DNA from: Acidobacteriaceae bacterium
Lineage (GTDB): Bacteria; Acidobacteriota; Terriglobia; Terriglobales; Acidobacteriaceae
Assembly (NCBI GenBank): GCA_003139095.1
Contig: PLHW01000064.1
Span: forward strand, 1-64,000
Reading direction: 5' to 3'
DNA: 64,000 bases
Position numbers and translations under genes: made by a program. The notes below the pieces were generated by a model. It was not told where the DNA came from. It did no database searches and was given only the letters and a program-made list of their open reading frames with translations. Positions within the stretch are counted from its first letter, which is position 1. Every line of letters starts with the position of its first letter. Positions 97 to 56,688 of the stretch are shown piece by piece.

Positions 97-138
97 CTTC
101 TGCCTTCTGCCTTCTGCCTTCTAACTTCTGCCTTCCAG
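97..138. repeat. Tandem heptamer locus (CTTCTGC family)
   Basis: Six consecutive 7-nt units, CTTCTGC three times, then CTTCTAA, CTTCTGC and CTTCCAG, lie upstream of the radical SAM gene. This is the first of a series of intergenic heptamer loci in the window. No inverted partner arm is visible, although one could lie left of the window edge. Confidence 0.85.
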
Positions 139-226
139 TGACATCCATCACAAGTGCCCGTGACTCGAATCACGGCCCGAGGTTTATGCCTCCCTTACCC
201 TTCCTCACAGGGTGAGGTGATTCCCA

Positions 227-1555
227 ATGAAGGTTCTGGAAGAGAATAACGTTGAAACGGCGCCGGCCGAAAAGCTCGCGCCCAATCCGCCGAAGGAAGT
301 GTTCAAGCCGCGGCTGATTTTCTGGGAGGTTACAAAGGGCTGCAATTTGCGCTGCATTCACTGCCGCGCGACTGCCACCGAGTTGAGTTCGCCGACGGAT
401 TTGCCGACCGCGAAGGCGCTCGACATCATCGATCAGATTGCCGCGCATTCGAATCCGATTCTCGTGCTCAGCGGCGGTGAGCCGCTGTATCGCTCCGATA
501 TTTTCCAGCTCGCAAAATACGCCAACGACAAGGGACTGCGCGTGGCGCTCGCGACGAATGGCACGCTGGTGACCAAGGAAGTGGCGCGCATGATCGCCGA
601 CTCCGGCGTGAAGCGGGTTTCCATCAGCCTCGACGGCGCCGACGCTATGACCCATGACAGTTTCCGCGGGATTCCGGGCGCGTTTGACGCGGCGCTGCAC
701 GGCCTGCGCAATCTGCAACAAGTGGGAATGTCGGTGCAGATCAATATGACGATCGCGCGCCACAACGCCGACCAGTTGCCGCGTGTGCTGGAACTGGCAA
801 AGACCGTGGGAGCCGACGCGCTGCACACATTTCTGCTGGTGCCGGTGGGATGTGGAGTGGATATTGCCAACGATCAGATGGTGCCTCCGGAAGAATATGA
901 GCAGATGCTGAACTGGTTTTACGATCAGTCGCTGGAGGGTGGGATTGAGTTGAAGGCGACGTGCGCGCCGCATTATTTCCGCGTCGTGCGCCAGCGCAGA
1001 GCGGCGGAGCGGCGCGCGGCGGAAGCCGCGGGAAAGCCGGTGGAGAGCGCGGTTCCAGCCGATCCCACGGCGATTGGCCCGGCCGACATGATCATGCCGG
1101 GAGGAACGGGAATTGTGTTGAAGCCGCAACCGGCGCCCAAGGGCAATCACACGGGACATCCCGCAGGTCAGCATACGGGTCATCCGAGCGGGCATCCGGG
1201 CGGTCATCCCAACGACATGAACGCGATGACGAAGGGCTGCCTGGCGGGAACGGGCGTGTGCTTCCTCTCGCACGAAGGCGAAGTTTTCCCCTGCGGATAT
1301 TTGCCGGCGATTGCGGGCGATTTGCGTAAAGAAAAGTTTGCCGACATCTGGGCCAACGCGAAGGTGTTTAACGATCTGCGCGATACCAATAACCTGAAGG
1401 GCAAGTGCGGATGCTGCGAGTTCCGCAACGTCTGCATGGGATGCCGCGCGCGGGCGTTTGCCGCGACGGGCGACTACCTCGATCCCGAACCTTTCTGCGT
1501 GTATGAGCCGAAGTCGGCAGCGCTGCGAGCCAAGATGGAACAGCGCGGCAACTAA
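227..1555 (+). CDS. Radical SAM/SPASM protein with His-rich insert
   Basis: The 442-residue protein has a radical SAM cluster motif CX3CX2C (Cys39, Cys43, Cys46, in GCNLRCIHC) and a GGEPL motif. A C-terminal Cys-rich SPASM region reads CFLSHEGEVFPCGY then KCGCCEFRNVCMGC, so auxiliary Fe-S clusters are expected. The layout resembles AhbD/NirJ-type heme-biosynthesis enzymes and the related TIGR04053-like family, but the substrate cannot be read from sequence. Between the two halves (residues about 306-330) lies a His/Gly/Pro tract of repeated GHP units, which I do not know from the family. The ATG at 227 follows GTGAGGTG. The gene is followed by a strong terminator and so is probably monocistronic. 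Confidence 0.9.
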   Translation: MKVLEENNVETAPAEKLAPNPPKEVFKPRLIFWEVTKGCNLRCIHCRATATELSSPTDLPTAKALDIIDQIAAHSNPILVLSGGEPLYRSDIFQLAKYANDKGLRVALATNGTLVTKEVARMIADSGVKRVSISLDGADAMTHDSFRGIPGAFDAALHGLRNLQQVGMSVQINMTIARHNADQLPRVLELAKTVGADALHTFLLVPVGCGVDIANDQMVPPEEYEQMLNWFYDQSLEGGIELKATCAPHYFRVVRQRRAAERRAAEAAGKPVESAVPADPTAIGPADMIMPGGTGIVLKPQPAPKGNHTGHPAGQHTGHPSGHPGGHPNDMNAMTKGCLAGTGVCFLSHEGEVFPCGYLPAIAGDLRKEKFADIWANAKVFNDLRDTNNLKGKCGCCEFRNVCMGCRARAFAATGDYLDPEPFCVYEPKSAALRAKMEQRGN

Positions 1556-1575
1556 GTTTTCCCTCCTCCTGGAGT

Positions 1576-1612
1576 GCGTGGGAAGAGCCCGGCACGCTCT
1601 TCCCACTTTTTT
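1576..1612 (+). terminator. Intrinsic terminator after the radical SAM gene
   Basis: A perfect 11-bp stem (GTGGGAAGAGC pairing with GCTCTTCCCAC), a 7-nt loop and a run of six T begin about 20 nt after the stop codon. Confidence 0.9.
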
Positions 1613-1660
1613 GCCTCCACAGCGACTTCCTTTTCTGACGTCATCCTGAGAGCCTTTGTT

Positions 1661-1722
1661 TTAGGTGTCATCCTGAGCGCAGCGGGGCGAGCGCGGCGAA
1701 CCCCGCGCAGTCGAAGGATCCC
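1661..1722. repeat. Dispersed TCATCCTGAGCG...GAAGGATC intergenic repeat
   Basis: The segment carries GTCATCCTGAGCGCAGC and, after a GC-rich centre, GTCGAAGGATCCCT. A similar core occurs in reverse orientation at about 32016-32048, and a degenerate relative is present at 50060-50098. It belongs to a common class of dispersed intergenic repeats. It carries no ORF. Confidence 0.6.
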
Positions 1723-1806
1723 TACTCCACGGCATGCCCCGCGATTTGCCAGCATTTATAATCGCTGCTTCCATCGGTACTCCATTTTCCAATCGGAGGA
1801 GTTGCA

Positions 1807-3360
1807 TTGGCACTCGACGACAACATTTATGAGATCCGGCGCGAGAAGCTGAAGAAGATTGAGGCGCTCGGGCAGCCCGCATATCCGCGTAAGTACAACT
1901 TTAGCCATACAGTTCCGCAAATACTGGGCGAGTATGGCGGACAGACGGCGGAGGAACTGGAAGCGCCGCGGGTAAACGTGCGCGTGGCGGGACGGATCAT
2001 GGCGATCCGGCTGATGGGTAAGGCGGGATTTGCGCACGTGCAGCAGGATGGGCAGCGGCTCCAGATTTACGTGAAGAAGGACGCGGTCGGCGACGCGGGA
2101 TTCGAGTTGTGGAAGCTGCTCGATTTGGGCGATCACATTGGCGTGCGCGGGTATTTGTTTCGCACGCGCACCGGCGAACTCAGCATTCATGCGGAGGAGT
2201 TGACGTTCCTGTCGAAGGATTTGCTGCCGCTGCCCGAGAAGTGGCACGGGTTGCAGGATGTGGAACTGCGCTACCGGCAGCGCTATGTCGATCTGGTGAT
2301 GAATCCGGAGGTGCGCGAAGTCTTCCTCAAGCGCAGCAAGCTGGTGCAGTCGCTGCGGCGCTATTTTGACGCGCAGGGGTTTGTGGAAGTCGAGACGCCG
2401 ATGATGCAGCCGATGGCGGGCGGAGCGGTCGCGAGGCCGTTTAAGACGCATCACAACACGCTGGATATGGATTTGTTTTTGCGCATCGCGCCTGAGCTGT
2501 ATTTGAAGCGGCTGACGGTGGGCGGATTCGATCGCGTCTACGAGATCAATCGCAACTTCCGCAATGAGGGGATTGGCTGGAGATGGAATCCGGAGTTCAC
2601 GATGCTCGAGGCGTATCAGGCATACACGGATTATTTGGGGATTCTGGATACGACGCAGGCCTCGATTGAACAGGCGGTGCAGGACGTGACCGGCGGGACG
2701 AAGACAAAGTGGGGCGAAGACGAGATTGACTGGTCGCACGGGAACTGGCGGCGCATGACCATGCGCGAGGCCATCACGAAGTTCTGGCCGGAAAAGGCGG
2801 ACGCCACGCCGACGCGGGAGGATTTTGCAACCCATGAAGGCGTGAAGGCGCTGGTGGATCGCGTGCGCGGTGCGGGAGTGAATCTCGCATACGACGCGGC
2901 CGAGCCGGTGGGGAAGACGGTGGCGGCGTTGTTTGAGGCCATCGCGGAAGAGCATCTGGTGCAGCCGACGATCATCTACGAATTTCCAACGGCAGTGTCA
3001 CCGCTTTCGAAGCAGAAGCCGGATGAGCCGGACTGGACCGAGCGCTTCGAGATGTTTGCCGGCAAGATGGAAGTGGCCAACGGGTTCAGCGAACTGAACG
3101 ATCCCGAGGATCAGCGCCGCCGCTTTGAGGCGCAGCTAAAAGAGCGCGAGCGCGGAGACGAAGAGGCTCACCAGATGGATGAGGACTACATTCGCGCGCT
3201 ATCCTATGGCATGCCTCCGGCGGGCGGAGTGGGCGTCGGCCTCGATCGCCTAGCGATGCTGTTCACGGATTCGCACACGATTCGCGATGTGATTCTGTTT
3301 CCGCTGTTGCGGCCGGAGAAGCAGGTAGCCGCGGAGGACGCCGAGAAGACTGAAAAGTAG
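1807..3360 (+). CDS. lysS: Lysyl-tRNA synthetase (class II)
   Basis: The 517-residue protein charges tRNA-Lys with lysine in the cytoplasm. An N-terminal OB-fold anticodon-binding domain (about residues 50-160) is followed by the class II catalytic core. Motif 2 is seen around EINRNFRNEGI and motif 3 in the C-terminal GVGVGLDRLAMLF. The length is normal for the family. The start is a TTG at 1807, chosen because AGGAG in ATCGGAGGAG sits 5 nt upstream and the protein opens directly with the conserved N terminus. It stands alone between a terminator and a convergent glycosyltransferase gene. Confidence 0.97.
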   Translation: MALDDNIYEIRREKLKKIEALGQPAYPRKYNFSHTVPQILGEYGGQTAEELEAPRVNVRVAGRIMAIRLMGKAGFAHVQQDGQRLQIYVKKDAVGDAGFELWKLLDLGDHIGVRGYLFRTRTGELSIHAEELTFLSKDLLPLPEKWHGLQDVELRYRQRYVDLVMNPEVREVFLKRSKLVQSLRRYFDAQGFVEVETPMMQPMAGGAVARPFKTHHNTLDMDLFLRIAPELYLKRLTVGGFDRVYEINRNFRNEGIGWRWNPEFTMLEAYQAYTDYLGILDTTQASIEQAVQDVTGGTKTKWGEDEIDWSHGNWRRMTMREAITKFWPEKADATPTREDFATHEGVKALVDRVRGAGVNLAYDAAEPVGKTVAALFEAIAEEHLVQPTIIYEFPTAVSPLSKQKPDEPDWTERFEMFAGKMEVANGFSELNDPEDQRRRFEAQLKERERGDEEAHQMDEDYIRALSYGMPPAGGVGVGLDRLAMLFTDSHTIRDVILFPLLRPEKQVAAEDAEKTEK

Positions 3361-3392
3361 GGATTCCAGTTAGTCCAATTTAGCGCAATCGC

Positions 3393-4484: not shown

Positions 4485-4502
4485 CCGGTGATCATCTCGT
4501 GG

Positions 4503-5654: not shown

Positions 5655-5656
5655 GG

Positions 5657-7648: not shown

Positions 7649-7655
7649 GGTTGGT

Positions 7656-8840
7656 CTATCCTCTCACGCTGACTTCGCGCCCGGGGGCGGGGCGCGAATT
7701 TTGAGGTGACGAAGGAGTGGCGGCGATGCGCTTGAAGCGATAGTCGCGATAGTCGCCGGGATTGCCGTCGCGCGCGTCGCAGGCGGCGAGCAGGATGTTG
7801 GTCATCTCGCGAGCGGTGACGAAGTGAAGCGTTTCTTGGCGATCGGCGGCGCCGGAGACAAGTTGCTGAAGAAAGTTGTGGAACGCGTTGCCGATGACGG
7901 CGTCGCGCTGCGCGGGATCCATGGAGTGACAGTGCAGCTTGACGAAAAGCCAGTTGGGGCGCCCGGCGACGCGGATGCGGGCTTTTTTCCAGAGCGCGAG
8001 ACGATGCAGCGACATGGGGCCGGAGCCAGTGATGGCGCCATTTTCGATGACCGGCTTGGCGCTGCGGAGGGAGCGCGGAAGATCGGTGACGAGCGGGCCT
8101 TGCACGATGAGCGGAAAGGTTTGGGGCGCTCGGCCAACGGCGAGGTTGCGGCCTTTTCTTTGCGGGGCGACGCGGTTGAGGGGAAACTCGCACTCGTAAA
8201 GTGAATTGACCTTGGCCGTTTGCGCGGGATGCCAGAGGCTGCTGGGCATGGTGAAGTCGGCGTAGCAACCGGTTTCGGCGAGGATCTGCATCTCGGAATC
8301 GACGCCGCAGAAGAGGCCGCCGGCGGCATTTGCGAGAGCAAAATTTCCGTGCACGAAGGCGTAGCGGGGCTGAGCAGACCCGTCGGCGAGCGAGAGGCAA
8401 CGGTGGCGGAGGGCAAGCTGGTCGCGGAATTCGACCAGTTGGCGGCGCGTGTTGTCGGCGGTATCGGCAGCGAACATGCCGTGGTGAAGATGGATTTCCG
8501 TTTCGCCCCAGCCGGCGCGGCAGTGGTCGGCGAGCATTTCGACTAGCTCTTCATCGTATTGCTCGGCGGGATAGAAATAGGTGTGAAGAAGAGGGCGGCC
8601 GTCGTGGTCCCGGAGCGAGTCGATAGCGCGGGGATATTCGCGGGCCCAGGCTTCGACGCGGCGAAGCTGCTCGGGACGCGGGACGCGCTTGTAGCCGCTG
8701 GTGGGATCGAAGGCGGGCTCAAAGTGGTCGGCGAGAGCGAGGATGAGATGAACGGGGCCGGACGCGGGCGAGCGCAGGCCATGCAGCGTGACCTGCGGCA
8801 AGACGCGGCGGGCGTAGGCGAATTTTTTCTTGAAGCGCAC
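7656..8840 (-). CDS. Polysaccharide-deacetylase-like protein of the exosortase cluster
   Basis: The 394-residue protein is soluble, with no clear signal peptide. The sequence shows HLILALADHFEP near the N terminus, then HTYFYPAEQYDEELVEML and EIHLHHGMF. These acidic and His pairs are what a metal-dependent NodB-like barrel would use. A later WLFVKLHCHSMDP adds another His pair. I assign it as a divergent carbohydrate esterase-4-like protein at the head of the cluster, but the match is loose and the activity is inferred. It is transcribed away from the exosortase gene across a 444-nt divergent region. Confidence 0.6.
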   Translation of the reverse strand: MRFKKKFAYARRVLPQVTLHGLRSPASGPVHLILALADHFEPAFDPTSGYKRVPRPEQLRRVEAWAREYPRAIDSLRDHDGRPLLHTYFYPAEQYDEELVEMLADHCRAGWGETEIHLHHGMFAADTADNTRRQLVEFRDQLALRHRCLSLADGSAQPRYAFVHGNFALANAAGGLFCGVDSEMQILAETGCYADFTMPSSLWHPAQTAKVNSLYECEFPLNRVAPQRKGRNLAVGRAPQTFPLIVQGPLVTDLPRSLRSAKPVIENGAITGSGPMSLHRLALWKKARIRVAGRPNWLFVKLHCHSMDPAQRDAVIGNAFHNFLQQLVSGAADRQETLHFVTAREMTNILLAACDARDGNPGDYRDYRFKRIAATPSSPQNSRPAPGREVSVRG

Positions 8841-9284
8841 GGGAAGTTTTCAGTTATCAGCTATCGGTGCCAGGCTCTCAGCTCTCAGTTTTGAATCCTC
8901 GCGTGGTTCGGCTTTACGCCGTTTATTCATAATAACTGTTCCTGGGCAAGGGGACGCGGTCTCGGAGGTTTGGGGCGGTTCTCGCACTATGGTTACTATG
9001 CGTGGGGGAGTGCGCATCCCGGCGATGGGTAACGGCATGATTTTCAATCGTTGGCGTAAGAAATTCTAGCCGCGCCATTCTTAATCGTAGTTAGGTCGTG
9101 GTCGGGTCAATGGCAATCGGACTCAACAAGTATTATTGCAAAGTTTGTTCGGGTGGTTCACGAGTCGCGCAAGATCGGGTAATCTAGTAACTGTTACTTC
9201 CCCCAATCCTTTCGTGTTTGTAGGGCCCGTATATTTTTTCGAAAGCGATGGCTTTCGCGTATTCTCGAAAGAACCGCGCGTTCT
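8841..9284. promoter_or_regulatory. Divergent intergenic region with heptamers and a hairpin
   Basis: This 444-nt gap separates the polysaccharide cluster from the exosortase gene. It holds six TCAGTTA/TCAGCTC-type heptamers at 8850-8891, the palindrome GTAACTGTTAC near 9187, and a perfect hairpin at 9240-9257 (CGAAAGC, GATG loop, GCTTTCG) 27 nt before the exosortase start. Half of that hairpin stem recurs at about 9265. No coding sequence is visible. Promoters for both directions must lie here, but I could not pick convincing -35/-10 pairs. Confidence 0.5.
8850..8891. repeat. Heptamer locus (TCAGTTA/TCAGCTC family)
   Basis: Six 7-nt units TCAGTTA, TCAGCTA, TCGGTGC, CAGGCTC, TCAGCTC and TCAGTTT directly follow the start end of the deacetylase-like gene. 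Confidence 0.75.
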
Positions 9285-18877: not shown

Positions 18878-21800
18878 ATGGAATTTTCTCGGCGGACGTT
18901 TATCAAGGGCACGGTCCTTGGGGGCGCGGGTTTTTCGGCGCTCGGGTTCGACCTCACTCCTCTCCATGCGCAGACGCAGGGGCTGAAAATTTCACGCGCG
19001 AGCGAGACCCGCAGCACATGTCCCTATTGCGCCGTGAGCTGCGGCATCATAATTTATACCCTCGGCGACAAGGCCAAGAATGCCATCCCACAGGTCGTCC
19101 ACGTGGAGGGCGATCCCGATCATCCCATCAATCGCGGCACGCTTTGCCCCAAAGGCTCTTCCCTCGAACAGGACATTCTGAACGAGCGCCGTCTCCTCAA
19201 GCCGCAGGTGCGCCGCCCCGGCGGCACCGATTGGGAAGACATATCCTGGGATCAGGCGTACGACGAACTCGCGCACTGGGTTAAAAAGACGCGCGACGCA
19301 ACCTTTGTCGAGCAGGACGCGCAAGGCCGAACTGTCAATCGCTGCGAAGGCATTGCCTTCACTGGCGGCTGCACCGACACCAACGAATTCAACTATCTCG
19401 CCGTCAAAAGTATGCGCAGCCTGGGGGTCTGCTACCTGGAAAACCAGGCCCGGGTTTGACACGGCCCAACGGTCTCCAGTTTGGGGCCCACCTTTGGACG
19501 CGGCGCAATGACGAACGGCTGGATCGACATCAAGAACACCGACATGATGTTGATCATGGGAGGCAACCCAGCCGAAAACCATCCCTGTGGCTTCAAATGG
19601 GCGATTGAAGCCAAAATCCACCGCAACGCGAAGACCATTGTCGTTGATCCCCGGCTTACGCGCACCGCGGCCAATGCCGACCAGTACGTACAAATCCGTG
19701 CCGGCTCGGACATTGCCTTCCTCGGCGGCGTGATCCGCTATGCCATCGAGAACAACCGCATCGCCAAAGATTACCTGGTCAATTACACAAACGCTTCTTT
19801 CATCATCAAAGACGGCTTCAAGCTGCCCGAAGATGGCCTCTACTCGGGCTTCGACGCCGAGAAGAAGACTTACGACAAGAAGACCTGGAACTATGAGGAA
19901 GGCGGCGATCTGACCGGCAAACCCGTCACCGCCTCCCCTGCCGGAAAACCCGCGCCCCCGCCAGCGCCGGGTGCTCCACCGCCTCCAGCGTTGCTTCCGG
20001 GCAAAGTTGCCTACGATCTTTCATTGCAGCATCCGCGCTGCGTCTTCCAGTTGCTGAAGCAGCAGTATTCGCGCTATACGCCGGAGATCGTCGAGCGCAT
20101 CACGGGCATTTCGCAGGATCAATTTTTGAAAGCTGCCGATTTGTTCACGTCCATCCGCAAAGACGGGGACATGAAGAAGGTGGCGACAATTATTTATGCG
20201 GTGGGCTGGACGCAGCACAGTTTCGGCACGCAAATCATTCGCACGGCCGCCATGCTGCAGTTGCTGATGGGCAACGTGGGCCGCGCGGGTGGGGGCGTGA
20301 ATGCGCTGCGCGGGCACTCCAACATTCAGGGCGCGACGGATATGGCGGGCATTTTTGATATTCTGCCCGGCTACCTGAAAATGCCGAACCCGGCCGATAC
20401 TGACCTGGCGGCATTTCTCAAGCGCACGACGCCGACTCCGTCCAAGCCCGATCCCTGGGAGTCGTTTAATTACTGGTCGAACACTTCAAAATTTACGGTC
20501 TCTCTCCTGAAGGCGTTTTATGGAGCCGCGGCCACCAAGGAAAACGACTTTGCCTTCAACTATCTGCCCAAGATCGACCGCAACTATTCCTGGGTCAATC
20601 TCTGGAACGACATGTACGAAGGCAAGGTCAAAGGCCTTTTCGCCTTCGGCATGAACGGCGTGATGATTGGCCCCGATTCCAACAAGAATATCGACGCCCT
20701 GAAAAAGGCCGACTGGCTTGCCGTCTGCGAGATCTATCCCGACGAAACCAGCGAATTCTGGCGCGCTCCCGGCATCACAGCCGACGATCAGAAGAAGATC
20801 AATACCACGGTCTACCGTCTGCCCGGCGCGGGATTTGCGGAAAAAGATGGAACCTTCGTCAACTCCGCGCGCTGGCTGCAATGGAAGAACGTAGCTGTTC
20901 CGCCGCCGGGGCAGGCCAGACTCGATCAGGAGATTCTGGCGACGATCTTCCTGAAAGTACGTGATCTCTATAAGAAAGACGGCGGCAAATTTCCCGACCC
21001 GATCGTCAACACTTCGTGGGCGTATACAACCCCGTACAACCCGTCGCTCCCCGAGGTTGCAAAAGAGATCAACGGCAAAGCGCTCGCTGACCTCACCGAC
21101 CCAAAGACCAACGTCACCATCAAAGCCGGACAGCAACTGCCGGGCTTCGCGTGGCTCAAAGACGACGGCACAACCCTCAGCGGCAACTGGCTCTATTGCG
21201 GATCGTGGACCGAGGCGGGAGCGATGATGCAGCGCCGCGGCACGGAAGATCCTTCCGGCCTCGGCATCTATCCCAACTGGGGATGGTCGTGGCCCGCCAA
21301 TCGCCGCGTGCTTTACAACCGCGCCTCGTGCGATATCGACGGCAAGCCCTGGGATCCTTCGCGCCGCCAGGTCTGGTGGGATGAGGCCAAGCAGTCCTGG
21401 GTCGGCAACGACGTTCCCGATTTCAAAGTAGACTCGGCGCCCAAAGATCACATGGGCCCGTTCATCATGAATCCCGAAGGCATCGGACGATTGTTCGTGC
21501 CGCTCGGCCCCATGAACGACGGCCCGTTCCCTGAATTCTACGAACCGATCGAAAGCCCAATCGCGAACATTCTGCATCCCAATCAGTCGAGCAATCCGGT
21601 CGTTAAGAAATACAAGACCGATATGGACAAGTACGCGCCCGTCGGCGGCGACTACAACATCATCTGCACGACTTATCGCCTGACCGAGCACTATCACTAC
21701 TGGACCAAGAACAATCCCATGAACGTCGAACTTGTGCCGGAGCCGTTCGTTGAGGTTCCGTTCGAACTCGCCGAGCGCATGAGCATCAAGGGCGGCGAAA

Positions 21801-22054
21801 AAATAAAGGTCTCCAGCATTCGCGCGACCTACATCGCCAAGGCGATGGTCACGCGCCGCATCAGGCCCATGAAGATCGACGGCAAGGAGACGTTTCAGAT
21901 CGGCATTCCAATTCATTGGGGATTCCGCGGCATTGCGGAAGACGAAGGCAAGACCGCGAAGACGCTGACGAACCAGTTGACACCGACGGTGATCGATCCG
22001 AACGCGTACACGCCGGAGTTCAAAGGTTTTTTGGTGAAGATTGAGAAGGTGTAG
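18878..22054 (+). CDS. fdhA: Selenocysteine-containing respiratory formate dehydrogenase, catalytic subunit
   Basis: The gene has 1058 codons including an in-frame TGA at 19457-19459 (residue 194), read as selenocysteine. The surrounding NQARV-U-HGPTVSSLGPTFGRGAMTN matches FdnG/FdoG-type enzymes almost word for word. A Tat signal (SRRTFIKG) opens the protein. A [4Fe-4S] site follows (CPYCAVSC with downstream GTLCPKGSS), then the bis-MGD domains. It oxidises formate in the periplasm and passes electrons to FdhB and FdhI. A Pro/Ala-rich insert occurs near residues 347-375. Both halves are in the same frame with no length change, which argues against a frameshift pseudogene. Confidence 0.95.
19457..19489 (+). 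promoter_or_regulatory. Sec UGA codon with bacterial SECIS-like hairpin
   Basis: Immediately 3' of the TGA, GGCCCAAC can pair with GTTTGGGGCC (two single-base bulges). This leaves an 8-nt loop that begins GGTCT at 19471-19475. Bacterial SECIS elements bound by SelB have a short stem with GGUCU-like loop residues at this distance. The structure is predicted by eye only. Confidence 0.75.
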
Positions 22055-22059
22055 TGAAA

Positions 22060-22168
22060 GTTCTCGGTTCTCAGTTCTCGGTTCTCAGTCGAGCTTGAAG
22101 AGCGGTGGAATCGAGTGCTCGAGAGAATGAGTTGGTGGAAACTGAGAACTGACAACTGAGAACTGAGA
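22060..22168. repeat. Inverted heptamer arms between fdhA and fdhB
   Basis: The left arm 22060-22087 is GTTCTCG/GTTCTCA alternating for four units. The right arm 22141-22168 is ACTGAGA/ACTGACA for four units and is its reverse complement. A 53-nt unique core lies between. Transcribed with the operon, the arms would form a ~28-bp stem ending 8 nt before the fdhB start codon. Confidence 0.85.
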
Positions 22169-22176
22169 ACTCCTTT

Positions 22177-27165: not shown

Positions 27166-27431
27166 GTCTCCTCAAGAAAGCCCGACTATTGTGTGTAAAC
27201 GAACACCAGGGACAAAACGACAGCGGAAAAAGTCGCAACGCCGGGCCCAAAGGAGCAATGGATCTCCAGTGCTTGCGGGATCGCCAACGCGATACCGTAA
27301 TACGAGCAGTGCCCTGCTACGAAGTCGACCTTTTCCGAAACGCTTTCACTGCGGGCAATGGGGGAGATGTCGATGATACCCTATTCGGCCGATTCGCCAA
27401 AAGATTCTTCGCGGCAAATTACAATAGAAAA

Positions 27432-27809
27432 ATGGCGACGATTCCTGCGGAGATTCACGGGCAAAAGTACATTTCGCTGGCGACTTTTCGCAAGAGCGGG
27501 GTGGCGGTTTATACGCCGATCTGGTTTGCCGAAGAGGGCGACAAGCTTTACTTCATGACCAACAGCAAACTGGGCAAGGTAAAGCGGCTGCGGAATAATT
27601 CGCGCGTGAAGGTTGCGCCCTGCACGATTCGCGGAAAGATTACCGGGCCGGAGTTTGAGGCGACGGCGCGGATTTTGCCGGCGGCGGAGGCGGGACGGGC
27701 GCGACAGGCGATCCGTGCGAAGTACTGGCTGGCGCGGTTGCCGTGGCTGTGGCGAAATTCGGATACCGACGTGGAGATTGTGGTTGGGTCGGTAGTCGCT
27801 GGTCGTTAG
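27432..27809 (+). CDS. PPOX-class F420/FMN-dependent oxidoreductase-like protein
   Basis: The 125-residue protein starts at ATG 27432 (MATIPAEIHGQKYISLATFRKSG), giving the normal length for single-domain split-barrel flavoproteins. A longer upstream frame has no family features. The IWFAEEGDKLYFMTNSKLGKVKRLRNN pattern is typical of the TIGR03666/PPOX F420 group. The last codons and the TAG stop fall within a heptamer repeat. Confidence 0.82.
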   Translation: MATIPAEIHGQKYISLATFRKSGVAVYTPIWFAEEGDKLYFMTNSKLGKVKRLRNNSRVKVAPCTIRGKITGPEFEATARILPAAEAGRARQAIRAKYWLARLPWLWRNSDTDVEIVVGSVVAGR

Positions 27810-27821
27810 TCGTTAGGCGCT
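27787..27821. repeat. Heptamer locus (GGTCGTT/AGTCGTT family) overlapping a gene end
   Basis: Five 7-nt units GGTCGGT, AGTCGCT, GGTCGTT, AGTCGTT and AGGCGCT run through the last codons of the PPOX gene and past its stop. The TAG is part of the AGTCGTT-AG junction. Confidence 0.8.
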
Positions 27822-29085: not shown

Positions 29086-29236
29086 TTCGTCGTTGGTCGT
29101 TCGTCGTTGGTGGTTCGCGGGCCTGCGAAGATGGTTGCTGTTGGCTTCTCGCAATCATTGCAGACAGAGTCTCGGGTGAGCAGAAACGCCGGCCCGGGCC
29201 ACCCATCCCGAACGACCAGCGACCGGCGACTGACGA
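29086..29236. repeat. Inverted heptamer arms between gap and pgk
   Basis: The left arm 29086-29120 alternates TTCGTCG and TTGGTCG for five units. The right arm 29209-29236 has CGAACGA, CCAGCGA, CCGGCGA and CTGACGA, reverse-complementary to it. An 88-nt core lies between the arms, with GCGGGCC and GGCCCGGGCC near its ends that can extend the stem. Confidence 0.82.
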
Positions 29237-29254
29237 CCAAATAAGGACGCAATC

Positions 29255-30466: not shown

Positions 30467-30470
30467 CGCG

Positions 30471-30498
30471 CTCTCAGCTCTCAGATTCAGGTTCTCAG
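30471..30498. repeat. Heptamer locus (CTCTCAG family)
   Basis: CTCTCAG twice, ATTCAGG and TTCTCAG follow the pgk stop by 4 nt. No inverted partner is seen nearby. Confidence 0.75.
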
Positions 30499-32124: not shown

Positions 32125-32820
32125 TTATTTCGTAGCCATTGCGCTCACTAGCGACTGGAAAATTTTGTAGCCGTCAGTGCAGCCTAGTTCTGGTTCGGCG
32201 GAGCGCTCGGGATGGGGCATCATTCCTAATACATTGCGGCCGGGGCTACAGATGCCGGCTATGTTTTCGATGGAACCGTTCGGGTTCGCCTCCGCCGTCA
32301 CCTCGCCTTCGGAACTCGTGTAGCGGAAGACGATGCGGTTGTCGCGCTTGAGTTCGGCGAGGGTCGCGTCATCGCAAAAATAATTTCCTTCCATGTGGCC
32401 GATGGGGATGGTGAGGACCTCTCCTTTTTTGCAGGCGTTGGTAAATGGCGTCTGATTATTTTCGACACGGACGTGCACCGGCTTGCAAACATACTTGAGG
32501 CCGACGTTGCGCATGAGTGCGCCGGGGAGCAGGCCAGCTTCGCACAAAATTTGAAAGCCGTTGCAGATGCCGAGGACGAGCCCGCCCGCGTCGGCAAACT
32601 TGCGCACCGACTGCATGACGGGCGAGAAGCGGGCGATGGCGCCGGTGCGGAGGTAGTCGCCGTAGGCGAAGCCTCCCGGGACGATGATGGCGTCGCAGTT
32701 CTGGAGGTCCTGGGAGTCATGCCAGAGGAACGTGGCGGGTTGCTGGGCCACGTGCTCGACGGTCCAGAGGGCATCGTGATCGCAGTTGGAACCGGGAAAG
32801 ATGATGACGCCGAATTTCAT
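32125..32820 (-). CDS. purQ: Phosphoribosylformylglycinamidine synthase subunit PurQ
   Basis: This 231-residue class I glutamine amidotransferase supplies ammonia for FGAM synthesis in purine biosynthesis. It begins [16 protein letters not shown]. The Cys nucleophile is in [10 protein letters not shown], and the C-terminal [12 protein letters not shown] gives the catalytic His and Glu. The partner genes purS and purL are not in the window. A heptamer locus lies immediately upstream of the start. Confidence 0.96.
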
Positions 32821-33429
32821 TTTAGCTCTCAGCTCTCAGTTGTCAGCTCTCAGTTAAGGCCGCCCGCCTCTGGCTTTCGGCTATTGGCTATTGACGATTG
32901 CGGGGGCCGCCCCCTTGTTTGGGCTTTGCAGACCATTTTCGGGTGACGATTTTATGGTTACAACGGTTCACGGTTGAGTCAAGGGAAAAGTGCGGACGCG
33001 TCAGCATGCGGGACGGAAATGTGCTGCGCCGGGCGCGCTTCGCGAATCCCGCATTGTTCAGGATCACGTCTTTCACGGGGCATGACCCCGTCACCCGACG
33101 TGCATGAATTCGGGCGCGGGGCCCTTTGGGGCGCGTCAATTCGTGAGGTTACGCTTGGCCGAATTGAGGTTTTCTCGGCACTAAAACCCATCGTGTGCTT
33201 GGTTCGTCGCTTCACACGTCCTTCGGTCACTGCACCATCATTCTTCAAACCTCAGCTTCAACCATGCGCATCTGCCGATGTGGATTTGACTTCAAGAACA
33301 GGACCACTCCCGTCGATAGACATTAGGGGGAGATTTCCGAATGCAACGACCTGCGAGGAATTGCGGAGAAGCCAAGGCAAATGAATTGGAGCATTCCTTG
33401 TGGACACTGGCGCAGGTGGGAACGGAACC
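32821..33429. other. Long intergenic region upstream of the TonB receptor
   Basis: This 609-nt gap begins with two adjacent heptamer blocks, AGCTCTC-type at 32824-32851 and GGCTATT-type at 32872-32899. Further right are short hairpins such as GGGGCATGACCCC (about 33078-33090) and an imperfect inverted repeat bounded by GAATT and AATTC near 33106-33144. No coding sequence is convincing. The region probably contains the TonB-receptor promoter and leader. Confidence 0.5.
32824..32899. repeat. Two different heptamer families side by side
   Basis: AGCTCTC, AGCTCTC, AGTTGTC and AGCTCTC (32824-32851) are followed after 20 nt by GGCTTTC, GGCTATT, GGCTATT and GACGATT (32872-32899). They are upstream of purQ. 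Confidence 0.82.
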
Positions 33430-40453: not shown

Positions 40454-40502
40454 TTCGTTGTTCGTTGTTCGCTGTTCGTCGTTCGTCGTTCGCTGGTCGC
40501 TG
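40454..40502. repeat. Seven-unit heptamer locus (TTCGTTG family)
   Basis: Seven perfectly phased 7-nt units, TTCGTTG twice, TTCGCTG, TTCGTCG twice, TTCGCTG and GTCGCTG, fill the pheA-rimI spacer. Confidence 0.92.
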
Positions 40503-41224: not shown

Positions 41225-41875
41225 GTGGGGCGCTGGATTCTGATCGCCGTCAGCTTGGCCGGAGTTGCGGTTCTATTCTGGTATGGCTGGTTTGTCCGCT
41301 ACAATCGCCGCCGCGCTGCCAGTATCCTCGAATGGCTGCAGGCCGCTTGCCTGGGAAAAGGGCGGCTGGACAATCTGCAATGGCAGGAGTCCAGTTCGCG
41401 ACTTAAAGCCAAGTTGCATCTTTCGTCGCGGTGGTTTGACGAGGTGCGGCTGACGATTGAGTTGCTGCCGCGACCGCGGCCGGTGCAGTGGGCGTTGAGC
41501 CGCTGGCATGAGCGGCAGGAGACGCTGACCTTTGAAGCCGACATGGGATTTCCGCCGGGCTTCCATCTGGATATTGTGCGCCATCGGTGGACGGGGCATA
41601 CGGGCGCGAAGAACGAGATGCGGCAGTGGATGGTGACGCATCCCGGGCCGATTATTCTGACGACGAAAGAAGATTGGCCGGTGGAACTGACTCCGCTGGT
41701 GAACGCGCTGGCAAGCTGGCGGGACAAGGATTTCGTCAGCGTGCGGTTTAACCAGAGGTCGCCGCACTTTACGGCGACGGTGGCGCTGGCGAGCCTGTCG
41801 GATCAGCAGGCGACGGCGTCGCTGCTCGGATTGTTCCGGGAGCTGGCTGCGAGTTCTTCGGCGCGGCAGCACTGA
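41225..41875 (+). CDS. Single-TM hypothetical protein
   Basis: The protein is 216 residues from GTG 41225, chosen because AGAGAGG lies 6 nt upstream and the protein then opens with a membrane helix (WILIAVSLAGVAVLFWYGWFV). The ~185-residue remainder is soluble, rich in Trp/Arg, with no recognised domain. There is no evidence for function. Confidence 0.65.
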   Translation: MGRWILIAVSLAGVAVLFWYGWFVRYNRRRAASILEWLQAACLGKGRLDNLQWQESSSRLKAKLHLSSRWFDEVRLTIELLPRPRPVQWALSRWHERQETLTFEADMGFPPGFHLDIVRHRWTGHTGAKNEMRQWMVTHPGPIILTTKEDWPVELTPLVNALASWRDKDFVSVRFNQRSPHFTATVALASLSDQQATASLLGLFRELAASSSARQH

Positions 41876-41879
41876 AATC

Positions 41880-42043
41880 GTCGTTGGTCGTTGGTTGCTG
41901 GGCTTTACTGCTGTCGTCTTTTTCTTCGACTCTGATCTTCAACTCTAATCGCGCTTGATCAAACTCCACCCCTTCTCTTTTGGAAATCCCTCAAATTGCT
42001 TCTGCCATTCTGGTTCTAACGACTAACGACCAAGGACCAACGC
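41880..42043. repeat. Inverted heptamer arms between hypothetical gene and response regulator
   Basis: The left arm 41880-41900 is GTCGTTG twice and GTTGCTG. The right arm 42016-42043 is CTAACGA twice, CCAAGGA and CCAACGC. A 115-nt, relatively AT-rich core lies between. The arms are reverse-complementary. Confidence 0.8.
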
Positions 42044-42048
42044 CTCTC

Positions 42049-42837
42049 TCACTCTGGTTCGGCGAGGAAGCGGTAGCCTACGCCGCGCACGGTTAGGAGA
42101 TGGCGGGGGCGGGAGGGGTCTTCTTCGATGTAGCGGCGGAGGCGGACTACGAAATTGTCGATAGCGCGTGTGTCGGTGTCTTCGTGGAGGCCCCAAACAT
42201 CTTCGAGCAGAGCTTTGCGGGAGACGATGCGTCCGTTGCTGCGGACGAGGTAGCGAAGGAACTCGGCTTCCATGACGGTGAGATGGATGGTGTTGCCGAG
42301 GCTGCGTAGTTCGAGTTCGGCGAAGTCGATGGACTTGCCGGCGAAGGAGAAGGAGTCGGGTTGCGGTGGCGCGTCACCTTGGCGGTCATGGACGGCCGGG
42401 ACGGCGGGCGCATCTTTCGGATTGGCGGGCGATTCTGCGGCGGTTGAGGGCGCGTTGCGACGGGTCCACGTGCTGCGACGGAGGAGGGCCTCGAGGCGGG
42501 CGATGAGGATGGCGAGCTCGAAAGGCTTGGGGAGATAGTCGTCGGCGCCGGAGGCAAAGCCCTTGAGCACATCTTCGGCGCGGCCGCGGGCGGTGAGCAT
42601 GAGGATGGGCACGTAGTTTTGTTTTTCGCGGAGGAGGGCGGCTACGTCGAAGCCGCTTTTGCCGGGGAGCATGACGTCGAGAACGACGGCGTCGAAATGC
42701 TCGGCGGGATCGAGGAGGCGAGCCAGAGCGTCTTCGCCATCACCGGCGACGTCGGCCTGGTGGCCTTCGGCCTGGAGGTTGTAGCGCAGGCCCTGCGCGA
42801 TGTGGGCCTCATCTTCGACGATGAGAACGCGGCTCAT
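42049..42837 (-). CDS. OmpR/PhoB-family response regulator
   Basis: The 262-residue protein has a receiver domain with phospho-acceptor Asp in DAVVLDVMLPGKSG and Lys in DDYLPKPFE. A winged-helix DNA-binding domain ends RHLLTVRGVGYRFL. The linker between them (about residues 125-160) is longer than usual and Pro/Ala-rich. It overlaps the sensor kinase gene by 4 nt. Target genes are unknown. Confidence 0.95.
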   Translation of the reverse strand: MSRVLIVEDEAHIAQGLRYNLQAEGHQADVAGDGEDALARLLDPAEHFDAVVLDVMLPGKSGFDVAALLREKQNYVPILMLTARGRAEDVLKGFASGADDYLPKPFELAILIARLEALLRRSTWTRRNAPSTAAESPANPKDAPAVPAVHDRQGDAPPQPDSFSFAGKSIDFAELELRSLGNTIHLTVMEAEFLRYLVRSNGRIVSRKALLEDVWGLHEDTDTRAIDNFVVRLRRYIEEDPSRPRHLLTVRGVGYRFLAEPE

Positions 42838-43830: not shown

Positions 43831-43858
43831 GTCAGTTCTCAGTTTTCAGTTGTCAGTT
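43831..43858. repeat. Heptamer locus (GTCAGTT family)
   Basis: GTCAGTT, CTCAGTT, TTCAGTT and GTCAGTT lie between the kinase and the Ig-like esterase gene. A complementary word, AACTGAC, appears at 45685-45705 on the other side of that gene. Confidence 0.82.
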
Positions 43859-46659: not shown

Positions 46660-47034
46660 GCCGCTATCTCCCACATCGCGTTTATGAAGTGCCCAAGTGA
46701 CAATACCAAGGCTGGAGCGAGGAGTTTGTAATAGTTGTGTAATTCATGGAAAAGCAAGGGGTTACGGGGGTAACGAATGGGCCGGCGGCCCATCTAGCCG
46801 CGAGTTGCAAGCCGCGAGCCGCGAGCAAACCTGGGCCCTATCAGCAATTTCGTTTTGCTCGTGGTTCGTGGCTCGTGGCTCGTAGCTCGCAGCTCGCAGC
46901 TCGCGGCGCGCCCGTATCTATCGTGATGCGGCGAACGCGCGGGGGTGATTTGTGACCTTTTCCGCGGGCGCACGCGAGTCGTAGAATTCGCGTAGTATCC
47001 ATAGGCGTGACCCGACCAGGAAAGAGGAGGTCCC
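46660..47034. other. Intergenic region with paired GCTCGTG/GCCGCGA heptamer arms
   Basis: The 375-nt gap upstream of the cytochrome gene holds a left arm 46797-46826 (GCCGCGA, GTTGCAA, GCCGCGA twice) and a right arm 46857-46905 of seven units (GCTCGTG, GTTCGTG, GCTCGTG, GCTCGTA, GCTCGCA twice, GCTCGCG). The core between them is 30 nt. No gene is seen. AGAGGAGGT at its end is the cytochrome ribosome site. Confidence 0.85.
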
Positions 47035-53156: not shown

Positions 53157-53499
53157 TGGTTCGCGGCGCTCCCGCCAGTGAAGGGTATCCAGCCTCAGAG
53201 TACCGCGACGGCGGAAGGCGCGTGGGGAGATTCACAGTCCGTAAATTACGCCAGTAATGCGGAAAAACCCGATTACCTCGGTCACTTTGAAAGGAGGTTG
53301 CGCCTCACGGCCTTTTTCGAAAACGCTTCGAAAAAGTGTTTGCGGGACGAGGAAGAGTTCGAATCGTGCGATCCAGCATAACTTCTTAAGTAACTTCGTG
53401 CACGCGGTCGCATCTAAAGGAGAAAGCGCAGCGCATGCTATACTGCGCTCAGAAGGGGCGGGCGGTTCCCTCCATGTGCCTGCTCGAGGGTTTCGAAAC
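53157..53499. promoter_or_regulatory. Divergent region between kinase and S41 protease
   Basis: This 343-nt gap contains a T-rich patch with TTTTTCGAAAACGCTTCGAAAAA dyad-like symmetry around 53312-53336. A possible -10 TATACT lies at 53439-53444, but no good -35 was found. No gene is seen. Confidence 0.4.
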
Positions 53500-55098: not shown

Positions 55099-55120
55099 TT
55101 TGACGCTTGAAATTTTGAGA

Positions 55121-55150
55121 AAGGCCCGGAGCGCCGGGCCTTTTTATTTT
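55121..55150 (+). terminator. Intrinsic terminator after the S41 protease
   Basis: AAGGCCCGG, AGCG loop, CCGGGCCTT and a T-rich tail begin 23 nt past the stop codon. Confidence 0.95.
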
Positions 55151-55223
55151 GACCGCTCAGGGGCATGGAAACAGGTTGCGCACGGGAAGGCGATATAAGA
55201 TCGCGGCAGACATCTAGGCAATC

Positions 55224-55892
55224 ATGATGATGACGACTCAAATTCGCCGCGCTGCGATGCTAGTTTTGTTGACCTTGCTCACCGGGACGAACTTCGGCGC
55301 GCAAGAGCGGGCACCGACGCCAGGCGATGGATCGACCACCGATGCCGCGCGGGTTATTGGCGAACGGCGGAGCGTGAAGGGAATCGGGAATTTCGGCGAA
55401 GTGACGCCGACTCTCTTGCGCGGCGGGCAACCCACGGCGGAGGGCTTCCACGCGCTCGCAAAGATGGGGGTGGATATTGTCGTCGATACGCGCGGAGGAC
55501 GAAGCCAGACCGCTGGAGAAGCAAAGGCGGTCAGCGAGCTTGGCATGCGGTATGTTGCGATCCCGTGGCATTGTCCGTTTCCGCATGACGAAGTGTTTGT
55601 TCAATTTCTGAAACTGCTGCATGACAACGCCGGCAAAAAGGTGTTTGTCCATTGCCGTTTGGGCGATGACCGCACGGGTATGATGGTGGCCGCGTATCGC
55701 ATGGCGGAGGAAGGCTGGAGCGCCGAGGAGGCCATGCAGGAGATGCGACATTTCGGCTTCACTCGGGCGCATCACTTTATTTGCCCTCGCCTGGAAAGCT
55801 ATGAGCAAGGTTTTCCCCAGCGAATGAAAGAGAATCCGGCTTTTGATGGCGTGCGATCGGACGCCCCGGTAAACGGCGGCGCCGCGAGATAG
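55224..55892 (+). CDS. Secreted CX5R tyrosine/dual-specificity phosphatase
   Basis: This 222-residue protein has a signal peptide (AMLVLLTLLTGTNFGAQ). The catalytic loop HCRLGDDRTG gives Cys144 and Arg150, and the general acid region is WHCPFPHDE. The fold is cyclin-phosphatase-like and small. The export signal implies periplasmic or extracellular substrates, possibly phospho-sugars or phosphoproteins. Start ATGATGATG allows ambiguity of two residues. Confidence 0.88.
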   Translation: MMMTTQIRRAAMLVLLTLLTGTNFGAQERAPTPGDGSTTDAARVIGERRSVKGIGNFGEVTPTLLRGGQPTAEGFHALAKMGVDIVVDTRGGRSQTAGEAKAVSELGMRYVAIPWHCPFPHDEVFVQFLKLLHDNAGKKVFVHCRLGDDRTGMMVAAYRMAEEGWSAEEAMQEMRHFGFTRAHHFICPRLESYEQGFPQRMKENPAFDGVRSDAPVNGGAAR

Positions 55893-55962
55893 TTGGCCTG
55901 CGCGCGGTTTCGAAAGATCTGGCTTGAGTGCGAAGAACGAAAGCCATAAAGTACATTGAGAC

Positions 55963-56595
55963 ATGCGCGGCAGCGCCCTTTATTCAATGGCAATCGCAAG
56001 TTTGGCTGGGCTTTGGACCGGAGACGGTCTACGGCCTGGCGGAAATGTGTCGGGCGGGGCGGCATTGTGGATTCCGGCTGTGCTGGTGGCGCTCGGCGCG
56101 GGCATTTTGGATTGGCGGTTCCGGCGGATTCCGAACTGGCTGACGGTTTCGGGGGCGGTGGTGGGCATCGCGGCAAACGGGATTGCACGCGGCTGGCCGG
56201 GATTGAAGATGGCAATGCTGGGCATGGCGCTGGGGTTGGCGCTGCTGCTACCCTTCGTGCTGGTGCGCAGCCTGGGCGCGGGTGACTGGAAGCTGGCGGG
56301 CGCGCTGGGAGCGTGCCTCGGGCCGCGGCCATTGCTGGCGGTGCTGGTGGGCGCGATTTTGGTGGCGGGAGTGATGGCGCTGGCCGTGGTGATATGGAAG
56401 GGACGGCTGAAGCAGACGCTTTTGAATATTGCGCGATTGCTGGCGGCGATGTTCAGTTTGCGAATGCCGGGGCCCGAGGTTTCGCTCGACAATCCGCAGT
56501 CGACGAAAATTCCTTTTGGCGTCGCGCTGGCGGCGGCGGTGATTTTGTATGCGGTGGCGGCGGCGATGGGAAGGCTTGGGAATTTGGTAATTTAG
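55963..56595 (+). CDS. A24 prepilin peptidase (CpaA/TadV-like)
   Basis: This 210-residue membrane protease has the two aspartates of type IV prepilin peptidases, in LDWRFRRIPN and in the GAGDWKL (GXGD) motif. It lacks the N-terminal methyltransferase domain, as in Flp-pilus CpaA/TadV proteins. Its final codons (GRLGNLVI) and stop fall in an 8-nt tandem repeat. The two TadE-like genes downstream make a small tad cluster. Confidence 0.88.
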   Translation: MRGSALYSMAIASLAGLWTGDGLRPGGNVSGGAALWIPAVLVALGAGILDWRFRRIPNWLTVSGAVVGIAANGIARGWPGLKMAMLGMALGLALLLPFVLVRSLGAGDWKLAGALGACLGPRPLLAVLVGAILVAGVMALAVVIWKGRLKQTLLNIARLLAAMFSLRMPGPEVSLDNPQSTKIPFGVALAAAVILYAVAAAMGRLGNLVI

Positions 56596-56688
56596 GAATT
56601 GAGAAATTTAGTAATTGGGAAATTGAAAAACCTGCTGCTGCGGTGAGATGGAGATCTTAAAATTACTCAATTACTCAGTTTTGAAATC
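56573..56688. repeat. Octamer repeat arms around a short core
   Basis: The left arm 56573-56630 repeats an 8-nt word of TTTAGTAA type (CTTGGGAA, TTTGGTAA, TTTAGGAA, TTGAGAAA, TTTAGTAA, TTGGGAAA). The right arm around 56659-56683 is AATTACTC twice, inverted to it. A ~30-nt core lies between. It includes the prepilin-peptidase stop codon. Confidence 0.8.

What the first reader, a model, noticed from the sequence alone, without database searches (positions are those of the whole stretch)
97..56688. Window-wide family of intergenic tandem heptamers with locus-specific words
About 14 separate loci between genes contain 3-7 degenerate tandem units of exactly 7 nt (one locus 8 nt). The word differs by locus (CTTCTGC, GTTCTCA, TTCGTTG, GGCTATT, GCTCGTG...), but period and copy number are alike. 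Clear examples are 97-138, 40454-40502 and 46857-46905, phased without a break. They are not in coding cores and none was seen in the mobile element after 57.9 kb. One element copied around would keep its sequence. Constant period with changing word suggests a local process (slippage, templated synthesis or a repeat-specific enzyme) or selection for 7-nt phasing. Heptamer STRRs are known in cyanobacteria; I know no functional account for this pattern here.
Basis: partly seen in the sequence, partly recalled or inferred. Interest (0 to 1): 0.8.

Follow-up and report, generated by a model that had tools for sequence, protein, structure and literature searches.

The report
Gene-flanking hairpins built of heptamer repeats
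The gaps between genes of this soil Acidobacterium hold many short tandem repeats of exactly 7 (sometimes 8) letters, often as mirror-image pairs that could fold the gap into a hairpin starting right after a stop codon; pieces of this pattern were reported before in other bacteria, but several of its rules look new.

Summary
Real, and larger than reported. The window's spacers hold 14 period-7 arrays; 200 dinucleotide shuffles give 0.10 on average. The missed feature is pairing: of 1,123 spacers of this genome and its genus, 95 hold a strong inverted repeat; 36 of these have arms of period 7, 19 of period 8, one of period 12, the rest none. Words come from a small shared vocabulary, mostly a six-base core plus one or two freer bases. 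Word orientation is fixed: 35 spacers read forward-then-reverse and none the other way by exact-core count, though one hairpin in the window runs the other way. Hairpin feet sit a median 5 nt from stop codons. Two sister species differ by whole 7-nt units (10 of 12 gaps of 4 nt or more) and sometimes by word in both arms. Most likely these are foldback-type intergenic repeats whose arms grow and shrink by slippage. What sets the words, and whether cells use the hairpins, is open. Paired tandem 7/8-mers were described in Geobacter (2009) and Xanthomonas (2015): a new variant of a known kind.

The parts
97..138 (+). single period-7 array, word CTTCTGC/ACTTCTN, about 6 units, upstream of the gene starting at 227
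   Evidence: TRF score 64; lag scan
8874..8888 (+). short GCTCTCA doublet in a degenerate run, 33 nt outside the gene 7656-8840
   Evidence: TRF; sequence print
22059..22089 (+). left arm, word GTTCTCN, 4 nt after the stop of the formate dehydrogenase alpha gene
   Evidence: stem 31 nt, score 25, loop 51
22141..22171 (-). right arm, inverted GTTNTCA, 5 nt before the start of the beta-subunit gene
   Evidence: partner score above 100 of 100 random spacers
27788..27816 (+). single array GTCGTTA overlapping the end of the called gene 27258-27809
29086..29117 (+). left arm, word GTCGTTN, 4 nt after the stop of the GAPDH gene
   Evidence: stem score 16, loop 91
29209..29240 (-). right arm, inverted GTCGYTN, 14 nt before the start of the PGK gene
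30470..30484 (+). short GCTCTCA array after the PGK stop; some relatives carry other words at this place
32824..32853 (+). array AGCTCTC, 3 nt outside the start of the minus-strand gene 32125-32820
   Evidence: no inverted partner
32872..32900 (+). array GGCTATT in the same spacer
40454..40502 (+). single array KTCGYTG, 7 units in phase
   Evidence: no inverted partner
41873..41907 (+). left arm GTCGTTG of a hairpin between convergent genes
   Evidence: stem score 15
42017..42051 (-). right arm of the same hairpin
43832..43858 (+). single array TCAGTTN in a 51-nt spacer
   Evidence: no inverted partner
46783..46826 (-). left arm (AGCCGCG) of a hairpin between divergent genes; polarity opposite to the rule
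   Evidence: stem score 20
46871..46914 (+). right arm (GCTCGNR) of the same hairpin, part of the array 46859-46911
56587..56616 (+). left arm with period 8 (AATTNNGN), overlapping the called end of the gene 56047-56595 by 9 nt
   Evidence: stem score 16
56661..56690 (-). right arm with period 8 of the same hairpin

Best explanation
These are foldback-type (hairpin) intergenic repeats. Each mature one is an inverted pair of tandem arrays in the gap between two genes, with its outer foot a few bases from a stop codon. SHOWN: between two sister species arms differ by whole 7-nt units; both arms of a hairpin carry the same word; the word nearly always reads forward going from the gene into the gap; words come from a small lineage-specific vocabulary, mostly a six-base core plus one or two freer bases; orthologous gaps can hold a different word in both arms, or no repeat. 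INFERRED: unit number changes by replication slippage, for which a 7-8 nt step is the favoured size; pairing of the arms in single-stranded DNA lets one arm template or align the other, so both keep one word; a sequence-specific step (an unidentified binding or recombining factor, or copying between loci) sets word and orientation and spreads words through a genome. They collect after stop codons because insertions there spare promoters, ribosome-binding sites and coding sequence. Any cellular use of the hairpin (transcript end, mRNA stability, nucleoid binding) is secondary and untested.
For: Pairing tied to the period: in 80 loci around pgk from many phyla (1.2 Mb), 23 of 43 period-7 arrays have an inverted partner within 400 nt (0.3 expected) against 0 of 39 arrays of the other periods 4-12. 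36+19 of 95 strong stems have period-7 or -8 arms, 1 another period. Unit order is mirrored: arm-arm score 591 against 513.5 +/- 14.6 after shuffling units, 29 stems. Whole-unit change: 10 of 12 gaps >=4 nt are multiples of 7 in the 6 of 19 orthologous heptamer spacers that align at >=75% identity, against 1 of 7 gaps in 9 of 23 other spacers, Fisher p=0.006. Word switch in both arms between orthologous spacers: L228 16806 by the array scan in both species; C19ext 20289, where one arm is seen only in the alignment. Polarity 35 to 0 spacers. Vocabulary; freer positions. Presence/absence: the fdhA-fdhB spacer has 122 nt between stop and start here, 13 in G010. Stop anchoring: 39 of 56 stop-side feet within 10 nt, 12 of 54 start-side. 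No consistent G-U excess in the sense RNA (74 G-U, 62 A-C), which favours a DNA-level process.
Against: About half the arrays have no inverted partner (27 of 57 fail the 95% test), and 19 of 57 pass the same test for a direct-orientation partner, so spacers also carry further same-strand copies. Loops are unrelated (two short matches among 55 hairpins), unlike copies of a mobile element. No target-site duplication or clean empty site could be shown. Freer positions of paired units match only 59% (48% after shuffling), so templating is loose. Fixed polarity is not explained by slippage alone. Stems were picked for high score, which inflates mirrored order. 13 of the 19 orthologous heptamer spacers were too diverged for the gap test.
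Confidence: 0.42

Rival explanations
1. Selected RNA hairpins: a post-stop stem-loop that ends or stabilises transcripts, like REP elements. Any stem will do, so words drift as long as both arms agree; slippage supplies length.
For: Feet at stop codons; divergent spacers hold 5 of 55 hairpins but make up 203 of 1,123 spacers; in the gap-pgk place 28 of 38 spacers (own included, a few genomes present twice) fold better than shuffled (z<-2): all 11 with period-7 arrays and 17 of the 27 without, the latter often by other palindromes to the eye; three other lineages have matched arms of other words there (L045, L056, L147).
Against: Mispairs that would be G-U in the sense RNA are not consistently in excess of A-C (48/23 in ++ but 26/39 in --). 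Only 2 of 56 stop-side readings have 6 or more T in the 10 nt after the stem, so they are not ordinary intrinsic terminators. Half the arrays are single. Fixed words, period and polarity are not needed for a stem.
Confidence: 0.25
2. Arrays of binding sites for a sequence-specific DNA- or RNA-binding protein (IHF/HU-like, cold-shock or other), each unit one site, paired on opposite strands.
For: In most words the same positions vary across loci (GTTNTCA: position 4 varies in 12 of 18 arrays, positions 1, 3, 6 in none); core-specific spacing (GTCGTT: 51 gaps of 7, one of 8; GTTTCA: 41 of 8, none of 7); polarity. Aklujkar 2009 proposed IHF/HU for paired repeats in Geobacter.
Against: About ten different words in one genome would need several proteins or one of very loose taste; a matched word in both arms is not required.
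Confidence: 0.15
3. Complete mobile elements whose terminal inverted repeats are the arrays (foldback or MITE-like), moved by a transposase such as Y1_Tnp.
For: Fixed inward polarity; nested pairs of different words in G073/G066 (by eye); presence/absence; two spacers of L240 share a composite module, 83% identical over 260 nt in opposite orientation; 9 genomes with >=10 array hits have more Y1_Tnp than the other 72 (median 10 against 2, p=8e-5); two of the three own-genome Y1_Tnp genes have an array in a neighbouring spacer, 0.4 and 0.75 kb off.
Against: Loops of own-genus hairpins are unrelated; the one G073 Y1_Tnp gene inspected is flanked by its own long palindromes, not by arrays; the correlation counts only two words and was not corrected for relatedness; with about one array per 11 kb, two near misses in three are weak evidence.
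Confidence: 0.14
4. Chance or composition of spacers.
For: Units are degenerate.
Against: Shuffles: 0.10 against 14 arrays in the window; reversed-pattern control 0 for TCAGTTN in 81 genomes.
Confidence: 0.01

Closest known systems
Paired 'global regulator binding sites' of Geobacter metallireducens (Aklujkar 2009, PMC2700814; passages and supplement legends read, not the supplements)
   Same: Sites of tandem 7- or 8-nt repeats on opposite strands, variable distance, several word classes in one genome (GTTGCTYN octamers in 24 pairs; TCTCCGTS[Y] in 21 places; MTYCTGA heptamers in 8 pairs). MTYCTGA resembles the ACTTCTN word here; GTTGCTYN is six bases plus two.
   Different: Read there as IHF/HU sites unique to that genome; the passages seen give no stop-codon anchoring, polarity, unit gain/loss or word switching.
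GGGAATC repeats of Xanthomonas and GGGGAYT of Nostoc (Rehm 2015, PMC4692102; abstract, sections 10, 13, 16 and passages read)
   Same: Intergenic heptamers, degenerate positions, 70 and 75 convergent inverted pairs, on the coding strand within 50 bp after stop codons and on the non-coding strand before starts: the same geometry and polarity.
   Different: One G-rich word family read as G-quadruplexes; the frequent words here have no G-runs.
TAACTGA repeats of Beggiatoaceae, cyanobacteria, Bacteroidetes (MacGregor 2015, PMC4679880; abstract, introduction, part 1 of 5 of the results, section 10, summary read)
   Same: TAACTGA is the reverse complement of TCAGTTA, a TCAGTTN unit; same orientation before start codons; 7-nt indels between Cyanothece strains.
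   Different: One word, nearly all single arrays, read as translational regulator sites; one inverted repeat reported in that genome.
Cyanobacterial STRR heptamers (recalled) and long simple sequence repeats (Mrazek 2007, as cited in PMC4679880 and PMC4692102; not read)
   Same: Heptamer excess and the polymerase-contact explanation of 7 nt.
   Different: Pairing and word rules not part of what I saw cited.
REP/BIME palindromes (listings only) and foldback transposons (recalled)
   Same: REP: intergenic hairpins; similar palindromes are present in these spacers. Foldback elements: inverted repeats made of tandem sub-repeats with variable middles.
   Different: No GTAG-tagged palindrome in the array words; no transposase or target duplication shown.

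Membership tests
Intergenic heptamer SSR/STRR | tandem units of 7 nt between genes, above chance | tested here: met
Intergenic heptamer SSR/STRR | length change by whole units | tested here: met
   10 of 12 gaps multiples of 7 between G073 and G066; not tested in the window's own species
Paired tandem-repeat sites (Geobacter/Xanthomonas type) | two arrays of one word on opposite strands in one spacer | tested here: met
   30 of 57 arrays beat 95% of random spacers; 55 stems with period-7/8 arms
G-quadruplex heptamers | runs of 3 or more G per unit | tested here: not met
   most frequent words GTTCTCA, GTCGTTG, GCTCTCA, GAAGTCA, ATTTGTA lack G-runs; the period-8 word ATCGGGTG and a two-array G-tract word have one
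REP | GTAG-tagged 20-40 nt palindrome | tested here: not met
   array words are not such palindromes; REP-like palindromes occur separately (by eye)
Foldback/MITE element | inverted repeats bounding the element | tested here: met
Foldback/MITE element | target-site duplication, insertion polymorphism, related copies | tested here: inconclusive
   own-genus loops unrelated; one pair of related composite spacers in G066; presence/absence without clean ends
Retroelement-type templated repeat | RVT_1 reverse transcriptase in the genome | tested here: not met
   no RVT_1 match in G000
Intrinsic terminator | T-run directly after the stem | tested here: not met
   2 of 56 stop-side readings
Known structured RNA | Rfam match in the array spacers | tested here: not met
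   at gathering scores only SECIS_3 at 19454-19512, not an array
IHF/HU binding sites | protein binding | not testable with these tools
   needs pull-down or footprint

The most novel reading that the evidence does not exclude
A single kind of repeat-writing system, present in scattered genomes of many phyla, lays down inward-facing arrays of 'six-base core plus one or two free bases' at gene ends. It has a lineage-specific vocabulary and rewrites both arms of a spacer together. Such a sequence-specific, strand-oriented writer would be a new kind of mobile or repair-coupled system, and the Geobacter, Xanthomonas, Nostoc and Beggiatoaceae repeats would be its dialects.
Probability: 0.2. Interest if true: 0.85.

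Novelty: new variant of a known kind. Interest (0 to 1): 0.6.

Why it matters
It joins several isolated reports of bacterial heptamer repeats into one testable pattern: period 7 or 8, matched inverted arms, fixed polarity, freer linker bases, stop-codon anchoring, small vocabulary, patchy distribution. It makes an old question (why 7?) testable, because two fetched sister species already differ by whole units and by words. If a trans-acting writer exists, comparison of array-rich and array-free relatives should find it.

Tried and rejected
Chance: rejected by shuffles. Reverse-transcriptase templating: no RVT_1 match. One element copied around: loops unrelated in own genus; the exception is a composite module shared by two spacers of L240. 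Purine/pyrimidine asymmetry of left and right arms: weak over all arrays; word-specific polarity replaced it. RNA-level selection through wobble pairs: no consistent sense-strand excess. Covariation of the gap-pgk spacer by alignment of 8 genus members: a weak consensus stem only (-16.3), the alignment being spoiled by length changes. Y1_Tnp as writer: correlated over 81 genomes, flanks inconclusive. Ribosome bridging by hairpins between stop and start: considered, set aside because convergent gene pairs also carry hairpins and start-side feet are farther away. Rows dropped: the period-12 stem (C24) is kept in the count of 95 but not in the 55; 12 of 104 period-7 and 17 of 43 period-8 arrays fitted no word; 10 of 56 stems fitted no word; contigs C6, C16 and C18 of G000 (9,047 bases) were fetched but left out of the counts.
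Full report
HOST. The window lies in an Acidobacteriota genome (class Terriglobia; nearest named records are peat/palsa 'Acidobacteriaceae' and Terriglobia MAGs with PGK 87-89% identical). G000 is 5.53 Mb in 75 contigs, 98% complete. Gene boundaries are from a simple dicodon gene caller that I wrote, not a standard annotation; start positions are less certain than stops.

OBSERVATION. In the window's 47 spacers there are 14 period-7 arrays at score >=9, against 0.10 (maximum 2) in 200 dinucleotide shuffles; periods 5, 6, 9, 10, 11 give none, 8 and 12 one each. Over 1.58 Mb of G000 (29% of the genome) the counts at score >=14, coding/intergenic, are 5/46 for period 7 and 2/20 for period 8; intergenic counts for periods 4, 5, 6, 9, 10, 11 are 1, 0, 0, 1, 1, 1.

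PAIRING. Many arrays have a mirror partner in the same spacer. Of 57 arrays (in 42 of 450 spacers, 721 kb), 30 match the reverse complement of another part of their own spacer better than 95% of random spacers; 19 do so in direct orientation. In 1,123 spacers of 40-500 nt from G000 and 11 genus relatives, 95 hold an inverted repeat of score >=14; 36 have period-7 arms, 19 period-8, one period 12, and 39 no period from 4 to 12. Outside the genus, 80 loci around pgk from many phyla (1.2 Mb; a few are records of the same genus) gave 43 period-7 arrays, 23 with an inverted partner within 400 nt, and 39 arrays of other periods 4-12 with none. Pairs were seen in a Pyrinomonadaceae MAG (L095), another Acidobacteria MAG (L084), a Verrucomicrobia MAG (L107) and others. 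The order of variant units is mirrored between arms: 591 against 513.5 +/- 14.6 (maximum 569 of 500) after unit shuffling, 29 stems; stems were selected by score, which inflates this.

WORDS. The 104 intergenic period-7 arrays of G000 fall into exact-word clusters of 11, 11, 11, 9, 9, 6, 4, 3 and smaller, with 18 singletons; random words of that composition give about 95. The 43 period-8 arrays have clusters of 9, 4, 3 and 21 singletons against about 42. Within most words certain positions vary in many independent arrays while others hardly vary: GTTNTCA (position 4 variable in 12 of 18 arrays; positions 1, 3 and 6 unchanged in 65 of 65 units), GTCGTTN (position 7 in 16 of 18), ACTTCTN (10 of 15), and at period 8 GGTTTCAA (position 1 in 13 of 15). 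Not all words are as clean: ATTTGTA varies at positions 4, 6 and 7 (11, 5 and 8 of 15), GCTCTCA at 2 and 4, GCTCGTA at 6 and 7, and GTTGCCA shows no preferred position (p=0.42). 92 of 104 period-7 and 26 of 43 period-8 arrays could be assigned to a word. Spacing depends on the core: GTAATT has 16 gaps of 7, 18 of 8, none of 6 or 9; GTCGTT 51 of 7 and one of 8; GTTTCA 41 of 8 and none of 7.

POLARITY AND POSITION. Word orientation relative to the spacer is nearly fixed: spacers with both arms by exact core read forward-then-reverse 35 times (16 G000, 13 G073, 6 G066) and never reverse-then-forward. Single arrays show exceptions, e.g. TCAGTT 2 left-reverse and 1 right-forward, GTTTCA 3 and 2; ACTTCT has the opposite sign because GAAGT is its left form; and the GCTCG hairpin at 46783-46914, too degenerate for the exact-core count, runs the other way. 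Feet of the 55 period-7/8 hairpins lie a median 5 nt from stop codons (39 of 56 within 10 nt) and 24 nt from start codons (12 of 54); for the 40 other stems the medians are 35.5 and 84. Of 105 arrays in co-directional spacers 46 lie within 10 nt of the stop and 13 within 10 nt of the start, about 10 expected for each. Only 2 of 56 stop-side readings have 6 or more T in the 10 nt after the stem.

EVOLUTION. In the gap-pgk spacer, genus members keep GTCGTT-type arms, only the right arm, or other palindromes; other lineages have other words in matched arms (L045 GTGGCTA, L056 GCTATCR, L147 GTTGTCA) (read by eye; arrays by scan). The fdhA-fdhB spacer holds the hairpin here (122 nt between stop and start) and 13 nt without one in G010. 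TCAGTTN in three units occurs in 12 of 81 genomes of the class (45 hits here and 30-35 in G029, G066 and G073, overlapping hits counted), reversed control 0; GTCGTTN in 4 of 81, where the reversed control hit one genome three times. In 193 and 200 kb of G073 and G066, chosen because TCAGTTN hits lie there, intergenic arrays at score >=10 are 55 and 53 for period 7 and at most 1 for any other period from 5 to 12; several spacers show nested pairs of different words to the eye. Of 44 orthologous spacers of G073 and G066, 42 reach 60 nt and 19 of these hold a heptamer array. In the 6 heptamer spacers that align at >=75% identity, 10 of 12 gaps of 4 nt or more are multiples of 7; in the 9 other spacers that do, 1 of 7 (Fisher p=0.006). 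In L228 16806 both arms differ, AGCTATC against AGGTRAT words; in C19ext 20289 both arms differ, CAGTTNT against AGGTGTC, the left arm of G066 being read from the alignment since it fell below the scan threshold.

MECHANISM. Whole-unit change is shown; slippage is its ordinary explanation. A DNA-level hairpin process is favoured over RNA selection because mispairs that would be G-U in the sense transcript are not consistently in excess (48 against 23 in ++ spacers, 26 against 39 in --; together 74 against 62), and paired units agree at freer positions in only 59% (48% after shuffling, never reached in 300 shuffles). Polarity, vocabulary and patchy distribution are not explained by slippage and point to an unidentified sequence-specific step. 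Y1_Tnp copy number correlates with array number (81 genomes, p=8e-5 for >=10 array hits, not corrected for relatedness). Two of three own-genome Y1_Tnp genes have an array in a neighbouring spacer, but the G073 copy inspected is flanked by its own palindromes.

KNOWN WORK. Aklujkar 2009 (PMC2700814, passages and supplement legends) described opposite-strand pairs of tandem 8-mers and 7-mers in Geobacter metallireducens as possible IHF/HU sites. Rehm 2015 (PMC4692102, abstract and sections) described GGGAATC heptamers with 70 and 75 inverted pairs. MacGregor 2015 (PMC4679880) described TAACTGA. PMC4853749 (passages) notes the latter in Thiomargarita. In nine searches of the held library I saw no account that combines pairing, word rule, polarity, stop anchoring and unit gain; most subscription papers are not in that library, and I read only the papers named. 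So the kind is known in parts, and this is a new variant with a wider rule set.

Noticed in passing
window 18878-22054: SECIS_3 (Rfam RF01989, 70.4 bits) at 19454-19512 suggests that ORFs 18878-19459 and 19508-22054 are one selenocysteine-containing formate dehydrogenase alpha gene with an in-frame UGA; this 'spacer' is nearly unchanged in five genus relatives.
   Followed up: partly
gap-pgk and pgk-downstream spacers of relatives (L119, L121, L130, L133): GTAG-tagged palindromes (GTAGCGCCGGC...) and GCATCGCTTTAGCGATGC palindromes stand in spacers where other species have heptamer hairpins.
   Followed up: no
L221 17682-17931 (G073) and its G066 ortholog: A heptamer spacer is 95% identical in DNA although the flanking proteins are only about 80% identical; possible unknown RNA or recent exchange.
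   Followed up: no
L230 about 1700-3000 (G073:C22): A Y1_Tnp gene flanked by repeated long palindromes (GCCCGGTTCACCGGGC and relatives), a likely REP-type array of its own; G073 and G066 have 36 and 19 Y1_Tnp matches.
   Followed up: no
L240 8990-9449 and 14487-14910 (G066:C32): Two spacers 5 kb apart carry the same composite of word arrays in opposite orientation, 83% identical over 260 nt: a clear sign of module copying between loci.
   Followed up: partly
   Followed up: no
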